From assembly GCF_029269265.1 (NCBI RefSeq), contig NZ_JARIXP010000001.1:1016418-1070980 (forward strand): a stretch of 54,563 bases of DNA, read 5' to 3'. This document shows, piece by piece, positions 42,042 through 46,379 of the stretch. This DNA comes from Rheinheimera sp. 1928-s (GTDB lineage Bacteria; Pseudomonadota; Gammaproteobacteria; Enterobacterales; Alteromonadaceae). Numbering within the stretch: position 1 is the first letter of the stretch; every line of letters starts with the position of its first letter. The position numbers were made by a program, and so were the translations under genes. The notes under the pieces are model-generated. The model worked only from the letters and a program-made list of their open reading frames with translations. It was not told the DNA's origin and searched no databases.

Positions 42042-43673
42042 TTAAATCGCTATTTTCTGCTGGCTTTGCAACTGCTGCCAGCGTTTTTCCTGCTCTTCAT
42101 TCAGTTTGGCTCTCGACAACATTACTTCACATTGCAAACGCAATTGTTCAGTTTGAACGGAGGGATCAATGTTTTCTGTGGATCGTAATGACTGCAGCAA
42201 ATTCAGCGCAATACCCACGTTACCGGGCATAATAGTAAAGGCCTGAATAAAAGCGCTCAGCGCCTGATGCAACTGGCCTTTTTCGTAAAGCAATACTGCG
42301 TTGTTGTTAAATTCCCTTGGTCCCATAGGTAAGCTTTCGCGTTCTTGCTGCTCTTGTTGCAAATAAGTGATAAACACAGGATCTGCATTTTTTAACTGAT
42401 AGGCATCTTGAGTCAGTTGTTTAAGTAACTCGCGGGAACTGCTTAATAAACCTACTTCATGCAGAGCTTTGGCTTTGTCCAGAATATCTTCAGCCCCTTG
42501 TGTTACAGGTTTTTTCTCCAGTGCCAGCAACAGCTGCTTCGCTTTTTCTATCTGATCTTTTAGATAATAAATCCTCGCCTGCACCACCACTTGCTGCTCT
42601 TCTTTGCGCTGATCCGGAAACAATTGGCGCATATTGCTTAAAGTGTCATTGGCAACTTTAGACAAGCGATTAGTTTGCTCCTCTTCGTCCACACTTAAGG
42701 CGTAATCAATAGAAGCGCGAGCCAGATTCAAATACAAATCAGGCTGCTCATAAATAGAGAAACGGGCAAAACGCAGCAAGTCTTTAGCTGCTTTAAACTG
42801 ATGTTCGTAGTCATGGGTTAAGCGGGACAGATGCAACAGCTTTTGCTGGCGCATTAAGTTGCGTGGCGCCATATCAGCCGCTTGTAGTAGTTCAGACTGG
42901 GCTTTTTTATATAGTTGCTGGTGCAGATGAATATCCGCCAGTAAATCCAAAGCCGCCAGTTTCATGTCAGCTTTATGCAACAGAGGTTGCAGCAGCGAGA
43001 TGGCTTCAGGGTAACGTTCACGCTGAATTAAACAGCGTGCCAGCCCAAGTTTAACCCAGTGCAGATTTTCGTGATGAATAAGGCTGCTATAAAACTGCTC
43101 TGCTTCGGTCCAGCGACCGGCTTGTTGCAGTATCTCGCCCTTAATTTTCAGCAGCATAGAGTTGTATTTAGGCTGATAGCCTTGTTTCAGCCATTCATCC
43201 AGTTGCTTCAGAGCCGGATCAGTTTTTTTCTGATCCATCAGACTATACAAGGGGCGGAACAAGTTTTTACGCTGCACTGTGCGGTCAATACGGGATTTTA
43301 AGTCTTTAATGGCGTAGGGTTTCACCATAAATTCGTCAGGCTGTAACTCTAAAACGCTGTGCACCAGGCTAGGATCTGTCTCAGCGCTGATAAAAATGAA
43401 ACCTGTGCAATGTCGAAATAAATTACGCGCTTTCAGCTCCTGATACAGCTGATAGCCATCTTTGCCATTCAAATTAAAAGAGCAAATGATCAAATCAAAA
43501 GCTTTGTCACGGCATTGAGTTAAAGCTATAGCGGAGTTTTCAGCGTAGTGGAAACTGGTGTAGCCCAGAGTTTCCAGAGCATAACGCAGATAATTCTGGG
43601 TTAACGGCTGCTCATCTACAACCAGAATTTGGATGTCTTTATTAAGTTTTACTGCCATAAATGAATCAGACAC
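42042..43673 (-). CDS. Receiver-like domain fused to TPR repeats
   Basis: A 543-residue protein. Residues 1-135 form a CheY-like receiver fold: the acidic pair is Asp20-Glu21 in VVDEQP, Ser96 in FISAETD and Lys118 in FMVKPY are conserved, but the phospho-acceptor position is Ser65 in IICSFNLNGKDGYQ, so normal Asp phosphorylation should not occur. From about 170 to 540 it has helical TPR-type repeats, including WTEAEQFYSSLIHHE, YPEAISLLQPLLHKA, YKKAQSELLQAADMAPRN and QLHQALSAFIQAFTIMPGN. There is no output domain for DNA binding. It may be a protein-interaction scaffold. The ORF starts with GTG; an ATG five codons later (43658) is equally possible. It is alone on this strand. Confidence 0.85.
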   Translation of the reverse strand: MSDSFMAVKLNKDIQILVVDEQPLTQNYLRYALETLGYTSFHYAENSAIALTQCRDKAFDLIICSFNLNGKDGYQLYQELKARNLFRHCTGFIFISAETDPSLVHSVLELQPDEFMVKPYAIKDLKSRIDRTVQRKNLFRPLYSLMDQKKTDPALKQLDEWLKQGYQPKYNSMLLKIKGEILQQAGRWTEAEQFYSSLIHHENLHWVKLGLARCLIQRERYPEAISLLQPLLHKADMKLAALDLLADIHLHQQLYKKAQSELLQAADMAPRNLMRQQKLLHLSRLTHDYEHQFKAAKDLLRFARFSIYEQPDLYLNLARASIDYALSVDEEEQTNRLSKVANDTLSNMRQLFPDQRKEEQQVVVQARIYYLKDQIEKAKQLLLALEKKPVTQGAEDILDKAKALHEVGLLSSSRELLKQLTQDAYQLKNADPVFITYLQQEQQERESLPMGPREFNNNAVLLYEKGQLHQALSAFIQAFTIMPGNVGIALNLLQSLRSTENIDPSVQTEQLRLQCEVMLSRAKLNEEQEKRWQQLQSQQKIAI

Positions 43674-43885
43674 CTATTATCATTTCTATCAAATATAGCG
43701 ACTAAACAGGTAAAAAGCTGCAAATTTTTCAAGTGAATTCAATGGCTAATATTTTTCTGATTTGGGAAAATTATAAATAAGTGAAAAAATGGTAAAAATA
43801 TAATATGTAAGGTGATTAGAAACAAGAGGTTAGGGACTTTTGGTGCTTTCCGAAGGAGTTGTACGTTCGGTGTTTATCAAAGAAG

Positions 43886-44279
43886 TGGTGGATGCTACTG
43901 GGATTTAATTAGCGAGTCTTGGGTTTTGTTAAGAGAGTGATGCTTTTCTTTAAAGGGGATGGTGGATGCTACAGGGATCCAATTAGCGAGTCTTGGGTTG
44001 TGTAAAGAGTGCGATGCTTTTTTATCGAAGGAATGAAGGAGTGGTGGATGCTACTGGGATTTAATTAGCGAGTTTTGGGTTTTGTAGAGAGTGCGATGTT
44101 TTTCTTTAAAGGGGATGGTGGATGTTACAGGGATCTAATTAGCGAGTCTTGGGTTTTGTAGAGAGTGCGATATTTTTCTTTAAAGGGGATGGTGGATGCT
44201 ACAGGGATCCAATTAGCGAGTCTTGGGTTGTTTAAAGAGTGCGATGCTTTTTTATCGAAGGAATGAAGGAATGAAGGAG
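43886..44279 (-). repeat. Five tandem repeats starting with the tRNA-Val 3' end (rtT-like)
   Basis: On the minus strand, downstream of the tRNA-Val genes, five units end at 43886, 43960, 44042, 44116 and 44190 (plus-strand starts), 74 to 90 bases long. Each begins on the plus strand with TGGTGGATGCTAC and about six more bases of the tRNA-Val 3' end including CCA, then diverges to a shared segment (AATTAGCGAGTCTTGGG and GAGTGCGATGC). Two tail types exist: one ending TTTAAAGGGGA and one ending ATCGAAGGAATGAAGGAG. None can fold as a tRNA. They may be decayed tRNAs or rtT-like units such as those of E. coli tyrT. Confidence 0.85.
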
Positions 44280-44355
44280 TGGTGGATGCTACTGGGATCG
44301 AACCAGTGACCCTCGCCTTGTAAGGGCGATGCTCTCCCAGCTGAGCTAAGCATCC
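44280..44355 (-). tRNA. tRNA-Val(UAC), copy 4 in transcript order
   Basis: A 76-base gene with CCA encoded. The acceptor arms GGATGCT and AGCATCC pair, the D arm is GCTC/GAGC, the anticodon stem TCGCC/GGCGA holds CTTACAA (anticodon UAC, reading GUA and GUG), and the T arm is ACTGG TTCGATC CCAGT. Sequence is identical to the copies at 44472 and 44581. Confidence 0.97.
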
Positions 44356-44398
44356 TGGGGTATTCTGTATTACATCACTTCTTAGAGTAAAAGTGAGG

Positions 44399-44471
44399 TG
44401 GTGGATGCTACTGGGATTAACCAGCCGCAGCCTCTTCTTTATAAAGGGTGGCGATGCACTCTTTAAAAAGA
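44399..44471 (-). pseudogene. Degenerate tRNA-Val-like unit
   Basis: This 73-base unit begins on the plus strand with TGGTGGATGCTACTGGGAT, the 3' end of tRNA-Val, then diverges: no anticodon arm or D arm can be found, though GGCGATGC and CTCTTT resemble the 5' side and the units of the array below. It lies between intact tRNA copies 3 and 4. Confidence 0.75.
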
Positions 44472-44547
44472 TGGTGGATGCTACTGGGATCGAACCAGTG
44501 ACCCTCGCCTTGTAAGGGCGATGCTCTCCCAGCTGAGCTAAGCATCC
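44472..44547 (-). tRNA. tRNA-Val(UAC), copy 3 in transcript order
   Basis: Same 76-base sequence as its neighbours, with CCA encoded and anticodon UAC in CTTACAA. All four arms pair. Confidence 0.97.
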
Positions 44548-44580
44548 TGGGTGTTCACTATACCTAAGCATCGTAAGAGA

Positions 44581-44656
44581 TGGTGGATGCTACTGGGATC
44601 GAACCAGTGACCCTCGCCTTGTAAGGGCGATGCTCTCCCAGCTGAGCTAAGCATCC
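44581..44656 (-). tRNA. tRNA-Val(UAC), copy 2 in transcript order
   Basis: 76 bases with CCA encoded and anticodon UAC. Identical to copies 3 and 4, which suggests recent duplication or gene conversion. Confidence 0.97.
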
Positions 44657-44712
44657 TGGGCATAACAACATGACTACAACGATTTATCTTTTAAAACAAC
44701 TGTACTAAAAGA

Positions 44713-44788
44713 TGGTGGATGCTACTGGGATCGAACCAGTGACCCCCGCCTTGTAAGGGCGATGCTCTCCCGGCTGAGCTAAGCATCC
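44713..44788 (-). tRNA. tRNA-Val(UAC), first copy after the promoter
   Basis: 76 bases, CCA encoded, anticodon UAC. It differs from the other copies at two positions: a U-G instead of U-A at one end of the anticodon stem (GGCGG) and AGCCGGGAGA in the D loop. Still folds normally. Confidence 0.97.
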
Positions 44789-44806
44789 ATCGTGTGGTCG
44801 GCCGTC

Positions 44807-44834
44807 ATTATAGGGGGCTCGGTTTTTGTGTCAA
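44807..44834 (-). promoter_or_regulatory. tRNA-Val operon promoter
   Basis: On the minus strand a perfect -35 (TTGACA) and a perfect -10 (TATAAT) are spaced 16 bases apart, 19 bases upstream of the first tRNA. A GC-rich discriminator (GACGGCCG) follows, typical of stringently controlled stable-RNA promoters. It faces away from gltX. Confidence 0.9.
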
Positions 44835-44929
44835 TAATATTTTTAGCTTTGTGAACTGTATGCTGTAAAAGTAGTCAGTTAAATCTTTTCCTGCATCGCA
44901 GCTTCGGCCGTGCAATCACAGCTTCGCGT

Positions 44930-44938
44930 TGGTACAAT
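44930..44938 (+). promoter_or_regulatory. Extended -10 promoter element of gltX
   Basis: TGGTACAAT is an extended -10 about 35 bases before the gltX start. The -35 region (GTGCAA) is weak. Confidence 0.5.
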
Positions 44939-44972
44939 AGCGCCCAATTTTTTGGCCTTCAGTGGATTCATT

Positions 44973-46379
44973 ATGTCTATAGTTACTCGTTTCGCGCCAA
45001 GCCCTACAGGTTATCTGCACGTTGGTGGCGCCCGTACAGCGTTATACAGCTGGCTGCATGCCCGGAAAACCGGCGGTACTTTTATCCTTCGTATTGAAGA
45101 TACCGATTTAGAGCGTTCATCGCAGGAATCTGTGGATGCCATTTTAGAAGGTATGGAATGGTTAGGTCTGGATTATGACGACGGCCCTTATTACCAAACT
45201 AAACGTTTTGATTTATATAAAGAAGTGGTTGCTCAGCTGTTAGCAGAAGGCAAAGCGTACAAGTGCTTCTGTACTGTTGAAGAAGTAGACGCTATGCGTG
45301 AAGCGCAAATGGCTGCTGGTGAAAAACCAAAATACAACGGTATGTGGCGTGATCGCACTGATCACCCAACAGACAAGCCTTATACCATTCGTTTTAAAAA
45401 CCCGCTGGATGGCGTTGTGGTGATTGACGATTTAATCAAAGGCCGCATTGAAATTGCCAACGCTGAGCTGGACGATTTAATCATTGCCCGTAGTGACGGC
45501 ACTCCAACTTATAACCTGACTGTTGTGGTAGACGACTGGAAAATGGGTATTACTCACGTTATTCGTGGTGATGACCATGTTAACAACACGCCACGTCAGA
45601 TGAATATTCTGGCCGCTTTGGGTGCTGAACTGCCGAAATACGCTCATGTGCCGATGATTTTAGGTGACGATGGCAAACGCTTATCCAAACGTCATGGCGC
45701 TGTAGGTGTAATGCAATACCGTGATAACGGTTTCCTGCCTGAAGCTTTGATCAACTATTTGGTGCGTTTAGGCTGGTCGCATGGCGATCAGGAGATTTTC
45801 AGCAAAGAAGAACTGGTGCAGCTGTTTGACTTAAGCGACTGTAACCGTGCGCCATCTGCTTTTAACACCGACAAGCTGATTTGGTTAAACCAGCACTATA
45901 TGAAGACTCTGTCACCAGACTACGTCGCCACGCATTTAGCCTGGCATGTGGCCGATCAGAAGCTGGATATCAGCACTGGCCCTGCCTTAGCTGATCTGGT
46001 GAAAGTACAAGCTGAGCGGGTGAAAACCTTAAAAGAACTGGTCGAAGTCAGTCGTTATTTCTACGAAGACTTCAGCGAGTTTGAAGAAAACGCCGCGAAA
46101 AAACATTTACGTCCTGTGGCTGCAGAACCGCTGGTTGCTGTTCAAACCAAGCTGGAAGAACTTCAGGACTGGTCGGTGGAAGCTTTACACAAAGCCATTA
46201 ACGATGCTGCTGAAAGCTTAGGTTTAGGCATGGGTAAAGTAGGTATGCCTTTACGTGTGGCTGTGACAGGCGGTGGCAACTCACCTGCGCTGGATGCAAC
46301 TTTGGCACTGATCGGCAAAGATCGTGTGTTAAAACGTATCAGTATGGCTTTGGACTACATCAGCAAAAGAGCTGAATAA
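44973..46379 (+). CDS. gltX: Glutamyl-tRNA synthetase
   Basis: Charges tRNA-Glu. From the ATG at 44973 it has 468 residues: HIGH region [51 protein letters not shown], the KMSKS equivalent [13 protein letters not shown] and a C-terminal anticodon-binding domain from about residue 320. The upstream in-frame extension of 21 residues does not look like any family N terminus and was rejected. It is divergent from a tRNA-Val operon, as in E. coli. Confidence 0.97.

What the first reader, a model, noticed from the sequence alone, without database searches (positions are those of the whole stretch)
43886..44788. tRNA-Val array with tandem repeats derived from the tRNA 3' end (rtT-like)
Four intact tRNA-Val(UAC) genes are followed, in the same transcript direction, by one degenerate unit and then five tandem units of 74-90 bases, each starting with the last about 19 bases of the tRNA including CCA and sharing further segments. 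Units alternate in tail type (order by plus strand: A, B, A, A', B), so pairs have been duplicated together. E. coli tyrT has a comparable set of repeats beginning with tRNA-Tyr 3' sequence (rtT), but I know of no such array for tRNA-Val. Units may yield short RNAs, be cut by tRNA 3' processing enzymes, or be decaying tRNAs.
Basis: partly seen in the sequence, partly recalled or inferred. Interest (0 to 1): 0.72.

Follow-up and report, generated by a model that had tools for sequence, protein, structure and literature searches.

The report
tRNA-Val pseudo-tRNA tail repeats
Behind a set of valine tRNA genes sit repeated, truncated copies of the same tRNA; related bacteria have them too, and the copies after the last gene look reshaped into a stop signal for transcription, though this is untested.

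Summary
The array is real. On the minus strand, behind a 12-of-12 sigma-70-type promoter, lie Val1-Val2-Val3, one degenerate unit, Val4, then five tandem units of 74-90 nt.

Each unit is a tRNA-Val lacking about its first 21 bases, with an altered anticodon loop and a kept 3' end. Such units occur at the same locus in Rheinheimera, Alishewanella, Arsukibacterium and Pseudocolwellia; outside the family they were sought with one pattern only, which also misses the window.

Two classes recur. Units between tRNAs are structured; units after the last tRNA are G-poor, C-rich and fold weakly. In 20 of 20 genomes holding both, from three genera, terminal units have the higher C/G. The window's tail has C/G 4.25 against at most 1.97 at 29 other tRNA-operon ends, and no intrinsic terminator.

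Best reading: pseudo-tRNAs, the terminal ones domesticated as a Rho-dependent terminator ahead of a codirectional gene. It works like E. coli tyrT/rtT but does not match Rfam RtT. I have no RNA data; the Rho step is inferred.

The parts
44807..44834 (-). promoter TTGACA-16-TATAAT, 12 of 12 consensus, followed by a GC-rich stretch
   Evidence: sequence
44713..44788 (-). tRNA-Val(UAC) gene 1
44581..44656 (-). tRNA-Val(UAC) gene 2
44472..44547 (-). tRNA-Val(UAC) gene 3
44399..44471 (-). internal pseudo-tRNA-Val unit (structured class S), between Val3 and Val4
   Evidence: (z -3.60)
44280..44355 (-). tRNA-Val(UAC) gene 4 (last intact tRNA)
44190..44279 (-). terminal unit 1, 90 nt, type B
44116..44189 (-). 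terminal unit 2, 74 nt, type A'
44042..44115 (-). terminal unit 3, 74 nt, type A
43960..44041 (-). terminal unit 4, 82 nt, type B
43886..43959 (-). terminal unit 5, 74 nt, type A; end of the array
42042..43673 (-). downstream gene in the same direction: response regulator receiver plus TPR protein
44973..46379 (+). gltX, divergent neighbour used as anchor for relatives

Best explanation
The units are old tRNA-Val pseudogenes made by loss of about the first 21 bases of a tRNA copy, so that spacer sequence joins the D-arm 3' strand; they gained an insert (CUCUUU) in the anticodon loop and were amplified in tandem. Copies between tRNAs stay as compact folded spacers. Copies after the last tRNA have lost the G-rich strands that would pair with their C-rich strands, leaving C-rich, G-poor, weakly folding RNA. 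I propose that this terminal array is a rut array: nascent RNA from the strong tRNA promoter is bound by Rho within the repeats, and transcription ends before the codirectional response-regulator gene about 210 nt downstream. Shown: anatomy, distribution among relatives, position-dependent composition, lack of a detected intrinsic terminator, presence of a rho gene. Inferred: Rho binding, termination within the array, any benefit of copy number, and gene conversion as the cause of 3'-end matching.
For: Terminal units have higher C/G than internal units in 20 of 20 genomes holding both (means 2.82 and 1.40), and fold less per base in 19 of 20; these are 5, 9 and 6 genomes of genera g1, g18 and g8 (genus labels). 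In named records, which overlap those genomes, 17 of 17, one of them (Motilimonas) doubtful. Window tail: C/G 3.74 over 394 nt; of 5418 windows on both strands only windows overlapping the array reach it. C/G is 4.25 in the 250 nt after the last Val, against at most 1.97 at 29 other tRNA-operon ends; 17 of those 29 have a terminator-like hairpin within 250 nt, the Val tail none within 900 nt. Only 4 of 1090 sampled 74-nt stretches of the window fold at -2 kcal/mol or weaker; three of the five terminal units do, the other two give -4.9 and -4.5. Against each genome's own tRNA (positions 22-56), terminal units keep A 0.90, C 0.89, T 0.89 but G 0.50. A rho gene is present (726.5 bits). The next gene is codirectional.
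Against: No transcript or termination data. A scan modelled on the RhoTermPredict RUT rule finds a site (C/G 5.6) but does not discriminate: 12 of 28 other tRNA tails also contain stretches with C/G above 2, five of them more than Val does (22 of 323 windows), one has a higher best C/G (6.5), and stretches of the window outside the array score higher too. G002 carries ten structured-type units after its last tRNA (C/G 1.67), against the pattern. Several relatives have neither units nor a detected intrinsic terminator at this locus, so units are not required. E. coli rtT itself is not G-depleted overall (C/G 1.14 over 495 nt). The 20 genomes come from three genera, so they are far fewer than 20 independent events; loci L209-L238 were picked by a motif search. 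Spacers between tRNAs are also G-poor. The G-retention count depends on alignment around the altered anticodon arm and on shared ancestry.
Confidence: 0.5

Rival explanations
1. Plain pseudo-tRNA decay: unequal recombination between tRNA copies leaves truncated genes, which slip into tandem arrays and are refreshed at the 3' end by gene conversion with the real tRNAs; no function.
For: The units align to a 5'-truncated tRNA; 3' 11-mers equal the genome's own tRNA in 109 of 130 units although genera differ, as conversion would give; copy number varies 1-10 among close relatives and some lack units.
Against: Base loss is G-specific rather than general; terminal and internal copies differ the same way in 20 of 20 genomes; class S cores exceed gltX fourfold identity in 28 of 28 species pairs and the best-matching spacer in 22 of 28. 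Weaker: internal-type units of three genera share 28 invariant columns of 71, but many of these are plain tRNA sequence.
Confidence: 0.27
2. Source of stable small RNAs, as in E. coli rtT: cuts at each CCA end release about 74-nt RNAs that act as regulators or sponges.
For: Contiguous tRNA-sized units, nearly all ending in CCA; the window's internal unit folds better than its shuffles (z -3.60); RtT RNAs are reported as released from tRNA operons (passages of PMC4986893).
Against: Terminal units fold weakly and are unlikely to be stable; covariation support for a fold is weak, one pair with double changes in each of two alignments; no target or expression data.
Confidence: 0.13
3. Scars or decoys of elements that integrate at tRNA 3' ends (att-site remnants).
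For: Direct copies of a tRNA 3' end, a usual att core (recalled).
Against: Homology extends through the anticodon arm to tRNA position ~22 and units are contiguous at about tRNA length. No integrase was recognised by eye among the eight ORFs of 80 aa or more listed around the array; only two of these were searched in Pfam.
Confidence: 0.04
4. Decoys for anticodon nucleases: pseudo-tRNAs with altered anticodon loops absorb toxin attack.
For: The altered part is the anticodon loop, and the same CUCUUU insert occurs in pseudo-tRNA-fMet units in 22 of 295 family genomes.
Against: The window's terminal units form no anticodon stem in the predicted folds; no nuclease was sought.
Confidence: 0.03

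Closest known systems
E. coli tyrT/rtT repeats (rttR; Rfam RF00391 RtT)
   Same: tandem repeats after a tRNA operon, each ending in the tRNA 3' end with CCA (annotation, sequence); the tyrT region is a Rho-dependent terminator (recalled, Madden and Landy 1989, not read)
   Different: no Rfam RtT match at the Val array; pseudo-tRNA units mostly of 73-124 nt instead of repeats of about 180 nt (recalled); E. coli region C/G 1.14 against 3.74 here; copies also between tRNAs; found in several genera of one family
Rho-dependent terminators (rut sites)
   Same: C above G, weakly folding RNA, no detected intrinsic terminator, strong promoter upstream
   Different: built from repeated tRNA 3' parts; Rho action not shown
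Pseudo-tRNA of Bacillus cereus (tRNAOther; PMC3399842, only the start of the abstract seen)
   Same: a predicted pseudo-tRNA said not to function in translation, whose deletion had cellular effects
   Different: a single gene flanking an island, not a truncated tandem array in a tRNA operon

Membership tests
Rfam RtT (RF00391) | match to the RtT covariance model at the Val array | tested here: not met
   no RtT match up to E = 1 in 43600-45000; in the whole genome only two sub-cutoff matches (33.7 bits, cutoff 45), both at the tRNA-Arg tail
Rfam RtT (RF00391) | tandem repeats carrying the tRNA 3' end, downstream in the tRNA operon | tested here: met
   E. coli comparison. That the units are transcribed is inferred from position
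Rfam RtT (RF00391) | stable RNA released from the transcript, effect on stringent response | not testable with these tools
   needs RNA work
Rho-dependent terminator | C-rich, G-poor, weakly folding RNA in the termination region | tested here: met
Rho-dependent terminator | RUT rule: 78 nt, C/G above 1, C every 11-13 nt | tested here: inconclusive
   met (C/G 5.6) but not discriminating; my own implementation of the rule text
Rho-dependent terminator | RNA polymerase pause site downstream of the RUT | not tested
   the second step of the published procedure was not implemented
Rho-dependent terminator | no intrinsic terminator before the next gene | tested here: met
   (simple consensus scans)
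Rho-dependent terminator | rho gene in the genome | tested here: met
Rho-dependent terminator | termination lost when Rho is inhibited | not testable with these tools
   needs an experiment
Functional tRNA gene | cloverleaf recognised by ARAGORN or Rfam tRNA | tested here: not met
   only the four genes; none of the window's units

The most novel reading that the evidence does not exclude
A bacterial family has turned truncated tRNA genes into a two-part operon element: folded partial-tRNA spacers between tRNA genes, and a G-stripped version after the last gene that acts as a repeat-built Rho terminator. Removing a tRNA's G-rich strands leaves its C-rich strands as ready-made rut sites, while concerted evolution keeps each unit's 3' end matched to the host's own tRNA-Val. 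The same anticodon-loop insert is found in pseudo-tRNA-fMet units, so tRNA-to-terminator conversion may be a general route.
Probability: 0.3. Interest if true: 0.75.

Novelty: new variant of a known kind. Interest (0 to 1): 0.6.

Why it matters
Tail repeats carrying tRNA 3' ends, such as rtT, are known mainly from E. coli, and why they exist is unclear (recalled). Here the same layout occurs, built from different material, in several genera with variable copy number and a built-in contrast (units before and after the last tRNA), so the terminator idea becomes directly testable. If right, it shows how a structured RNA gene can become an unstructured termination signal mainly by losing its G-rich strands, and it gives named species to work with.

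Tried and rejected
Att-site scars and element remnants: judged unlikely because homology runs through the anticodon arm; integrases were looked for only by eye among the ORFs. Membership of Rfam RtT: rejected at this locus. My first survey used only the motif GCATCCACCA and wrongly suggested that other genera lack units; it missed genera whose tRNA ends otherwise. Repeating it with each genome's own tRNA 3' end corrected this. The RhoTermPredict-like rule was tried as a sharper test and did not discriminate. Covariation for the internal unit fold is weak, so I do not claim a conserved RNA structure.

Limits of the searches. The pattern does not match the window's own units and matches only 4 of the 12 near relatives (G001, G015, G016, G021), so it undercounts, and 'not seen outside the family' rests on it alone. 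In one search several of the 67 matching genomes carry only matches that look protein-coding (runs such as TCTTTACCTAATAAACC), judged by eye and not counted genome by genome, so 67 is an upper figure for this pattern; the reversed control matched in one genome. In one search one genome of 369 (G1103) matched, which looks like chance; the reversed control also matched in one genome. The 17 of 29 is not a frequency: the loci are 40 fetched stretches chosen from the relatives plus the window, enriched for the window's genus and for genomes with a match; without the 11 counted near relatives it is 6 of 18, and one of the six (G033) is a single 177-nt stretch.

Rows dropped or doubtful. One search left out four loci with labels ending in x (two duplicates, two without a tRNA-Val) and terminal units on contigs with under 150 nt after the last tRNA. 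One search counted 29 of 41 examined loci for the 17 of 29. G002's ten units were taken, because merged three of them. G010 and G012 are split over contigs and G004's contig ends just after its last tRNA. One search examined 60 of the 80 loci: 32 of 55 with at least 250 nt after the last tRNA gave units, but Motilimonas cestriensis (possibly a tRNA that my 76-nt filter dropped) and R. baltica (one 186-nt stretch) are doubtful, and a spacing limit stopped the scan early in some negatives (such as L312 and L318).

Paper searches: in the rows listed, 10 to 20 per search where more papers matched, I saw nothing on tRNA-Val tail arrays. That is no proof of absence from print. Seen: PMC6407284 abstract and two sections; passages of PMC4986893 and PMC2965389; other papers as listings with the start of the abstract.

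Full report
What is there. On the minus strand a 12-of-12 sigma-70-type promoter (44834 to 44807) precedes Val1, Val2, Val3, an internal degenerate unit (44471-44399), Val4, and five contiguous units of 90, 74, 74, 82 and 74 nt ending at 43886. Ten copies of the tRNA 3' end are found at the reported places. Only the four genes are recognised as tRNA by ARAGORN and Rfam.

What the units are. Beyond the shared 3' end, the units align to tRNA-Val from about position 22 onward: GCATCGC from the D-arm 3' side, then an anticodon region in which CTTACAA has become CTCTTTACAAA or similar, then a kept or altered T arm and the 3' acceptor strand. About the first 21 bases of the tRNA are replaced by spacer-like sequence. 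They are therefore 5'-truncated pseudo-tRNAs.

Distribution. I used gltX as anchor and fetched 40 stretches from relatives. Of the 29 loci with at least 150 nt after the last tRNA, the window counted, 17 carry units. This sample is enriched for near relatives; without the 11 nearest it is 6 of 18. In the sub-clade nearest the window (gltX 96% identical or more) all 12 genomes have units, 1 to 10 found per genome, two of the genomes being split over contigs. Named records show units in Rheinheimera, Alishewanella, Arsukibacterium and Pseudocolwellia. A motif search over 395 family genomes matches 67 genomes in 18 of 52 genera, some of them by chance matches in coding sequence. The same pattern in a sample of 369 genomes of the class, nearly all outside the family, matches one genome, which looks like chance. 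This pattern misses the window itself and 8 of the 12 near relatives, so restriction to the family is likely but not shown.

Two classes. Units between tRNAs have C/G near 1.4 and fold; units after the last tRNA have C/G near 2.8 and fold weakly. Terminal exceeds internal in 20 of 20 genomes with both, and folds less in 19 of 20. These are 5, 9 and 6 genomes of three genera (labels), so not 20 independent events. Pooled C/G is 1.50 for spacers, 1.37 for internal units, 2.42 for terminal units and 1.86 for the 100 nt after the array. Spacers are as G-poor as terminal units (0.116 and 0.125) but have far less C (0.174 and 0.302), so what marks terminal units is C kept and G lost. Aligned to each genome's own tRNA, terminal units keep A, C and T at 0.89-0.90 but G at 0.50; internal units keep A, C and T at 0.85-0.89 and G at 0.67. 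Part of that loss goes back to shared replacement of one G-rich stretch; but the replacing sequences differ between Rheinheimera and the genera whose tRNA ends in ATCGTCCACCA.

The insert. In internal-type units of three genera (one of them, G480, at a contig end, so that its position is unknown) the inserted GCUCUU lies opposite GAGAGC, derived from the D arm, and RNAalifold pairs them. In terminal units the GAGAGC side has often become AAAAGC or AAAAAC while the CUCUUU side stays. Support by double changes is slight: one pair in each of two alignments. TCTTTAY occurs in 30 of 62 units at loci not selected for it, and YTTTAY in 51 of 62. The same insert is found in pseudo-tRNA-fMet units in 22 of 295 family genomes, three genera.

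Conservation. Between eight species, cores of class S units (one chosen per genome; six lie between tRNAs, that of G002 lies after the last tRNA and that of G010 before a contig end) average 0.88 identity. That is above gltX fourfold sites (mean 0.71) in 28 of 28 pairs and above the best-matching spacer in 22 of 28. The 3' 11-mer of a unit equals the genome's own tRNA in 109 of 130 units, although genera differ in that sequence. Gene conversion with the tRNA genes is the simplest cause; selection for matching is not excluded.

How it may work. The operon is led by a strong-looking promoter and followed, about 210 nt after the array, by a gene in the same direction, a response regulator with TPR repeats. 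Of 29 other tRNA-operon ends in the genome, 17 have a terminator-like hairpin within 250 nt; the Val tail has none within 900 nt and the highest C/G (4.25, next 1.97). Over 394 nt the tail is the most C-over-G place of the window on either strand. Rho is encoded. Rho-dependent termination in the terminal array is therefore my best explanation. Internal units, which must let transcription pass, lack this composition, which is the strongest indirect argument. Against it stand the non-discriminating RUT scan, the G002 exception, relatives that manage without units, the untested pause site, and the lack of any RNA data.

Against known systems. The layout resembles E. coli tyrT/rtT (region, sequence), but the Val units do not match RtT, are shorter, and are pseudo-tRNAs. 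RtT-like elements do exist in this genome, after tRNA-Arg, below the family cutoff. I rate it a new variant of a known kind.

Noticed in passing
G000:C1:629085-629216 and 629348-629480 (L078 from about 886): Two sub-cutoff Rfam RtT matches (33.7 bits, cutoff 45) in a tandem repeat after the tRNA-Ser-Arg-Arg operon, with a copy of the tRNA-Arg 3' end plus its terminator hairpin and an inverted copy of the tRNA 3' part.
   Followed up: partly
L083 (G000:C3:1-1600) and L084 (G000:C22:150700-153000): Pseudo-tRNA-fMet units after Met(CAU) tRNA genes with the same CTCTTT insert in the anticodon loop as the Val units; L083 shows a repeat including an intrinsic terminator, cut by the contig end. A pattern search finds such units in 22 of 295 family genomes.
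   Followed up: partly
L256 (G001), L257 (G010) and G002:C68:158159-158369: Some pseudo-fMet units carry a second insert (GCTCTTCACAAAGATC) in the T-loop region, resembling the module in the anticodon region of one Val unit subtype (CGCCACTCTTCACAAAGAATAGG).
   Followed up: no
L126 (G035) and L117 (G042): Val tail arrays of six units of 97-100 nt in other genera with their own leaders; possible independent amplification.
   Followed up: partly
L110 (G011) and L230 (G661): Short simple tandem repeats (AATCTTCA type right after the last tRNA-Val; TTCTTTAA type inside a unit): G-free satellites in the same position as the arrays.
   Followed up: no
window 44806-44789, minus strand: The promoter is followed by a GC-rich stretch (GACGGCCG), as at stringently controlled stable-RNA promoters (recalled).
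   Followed up: no
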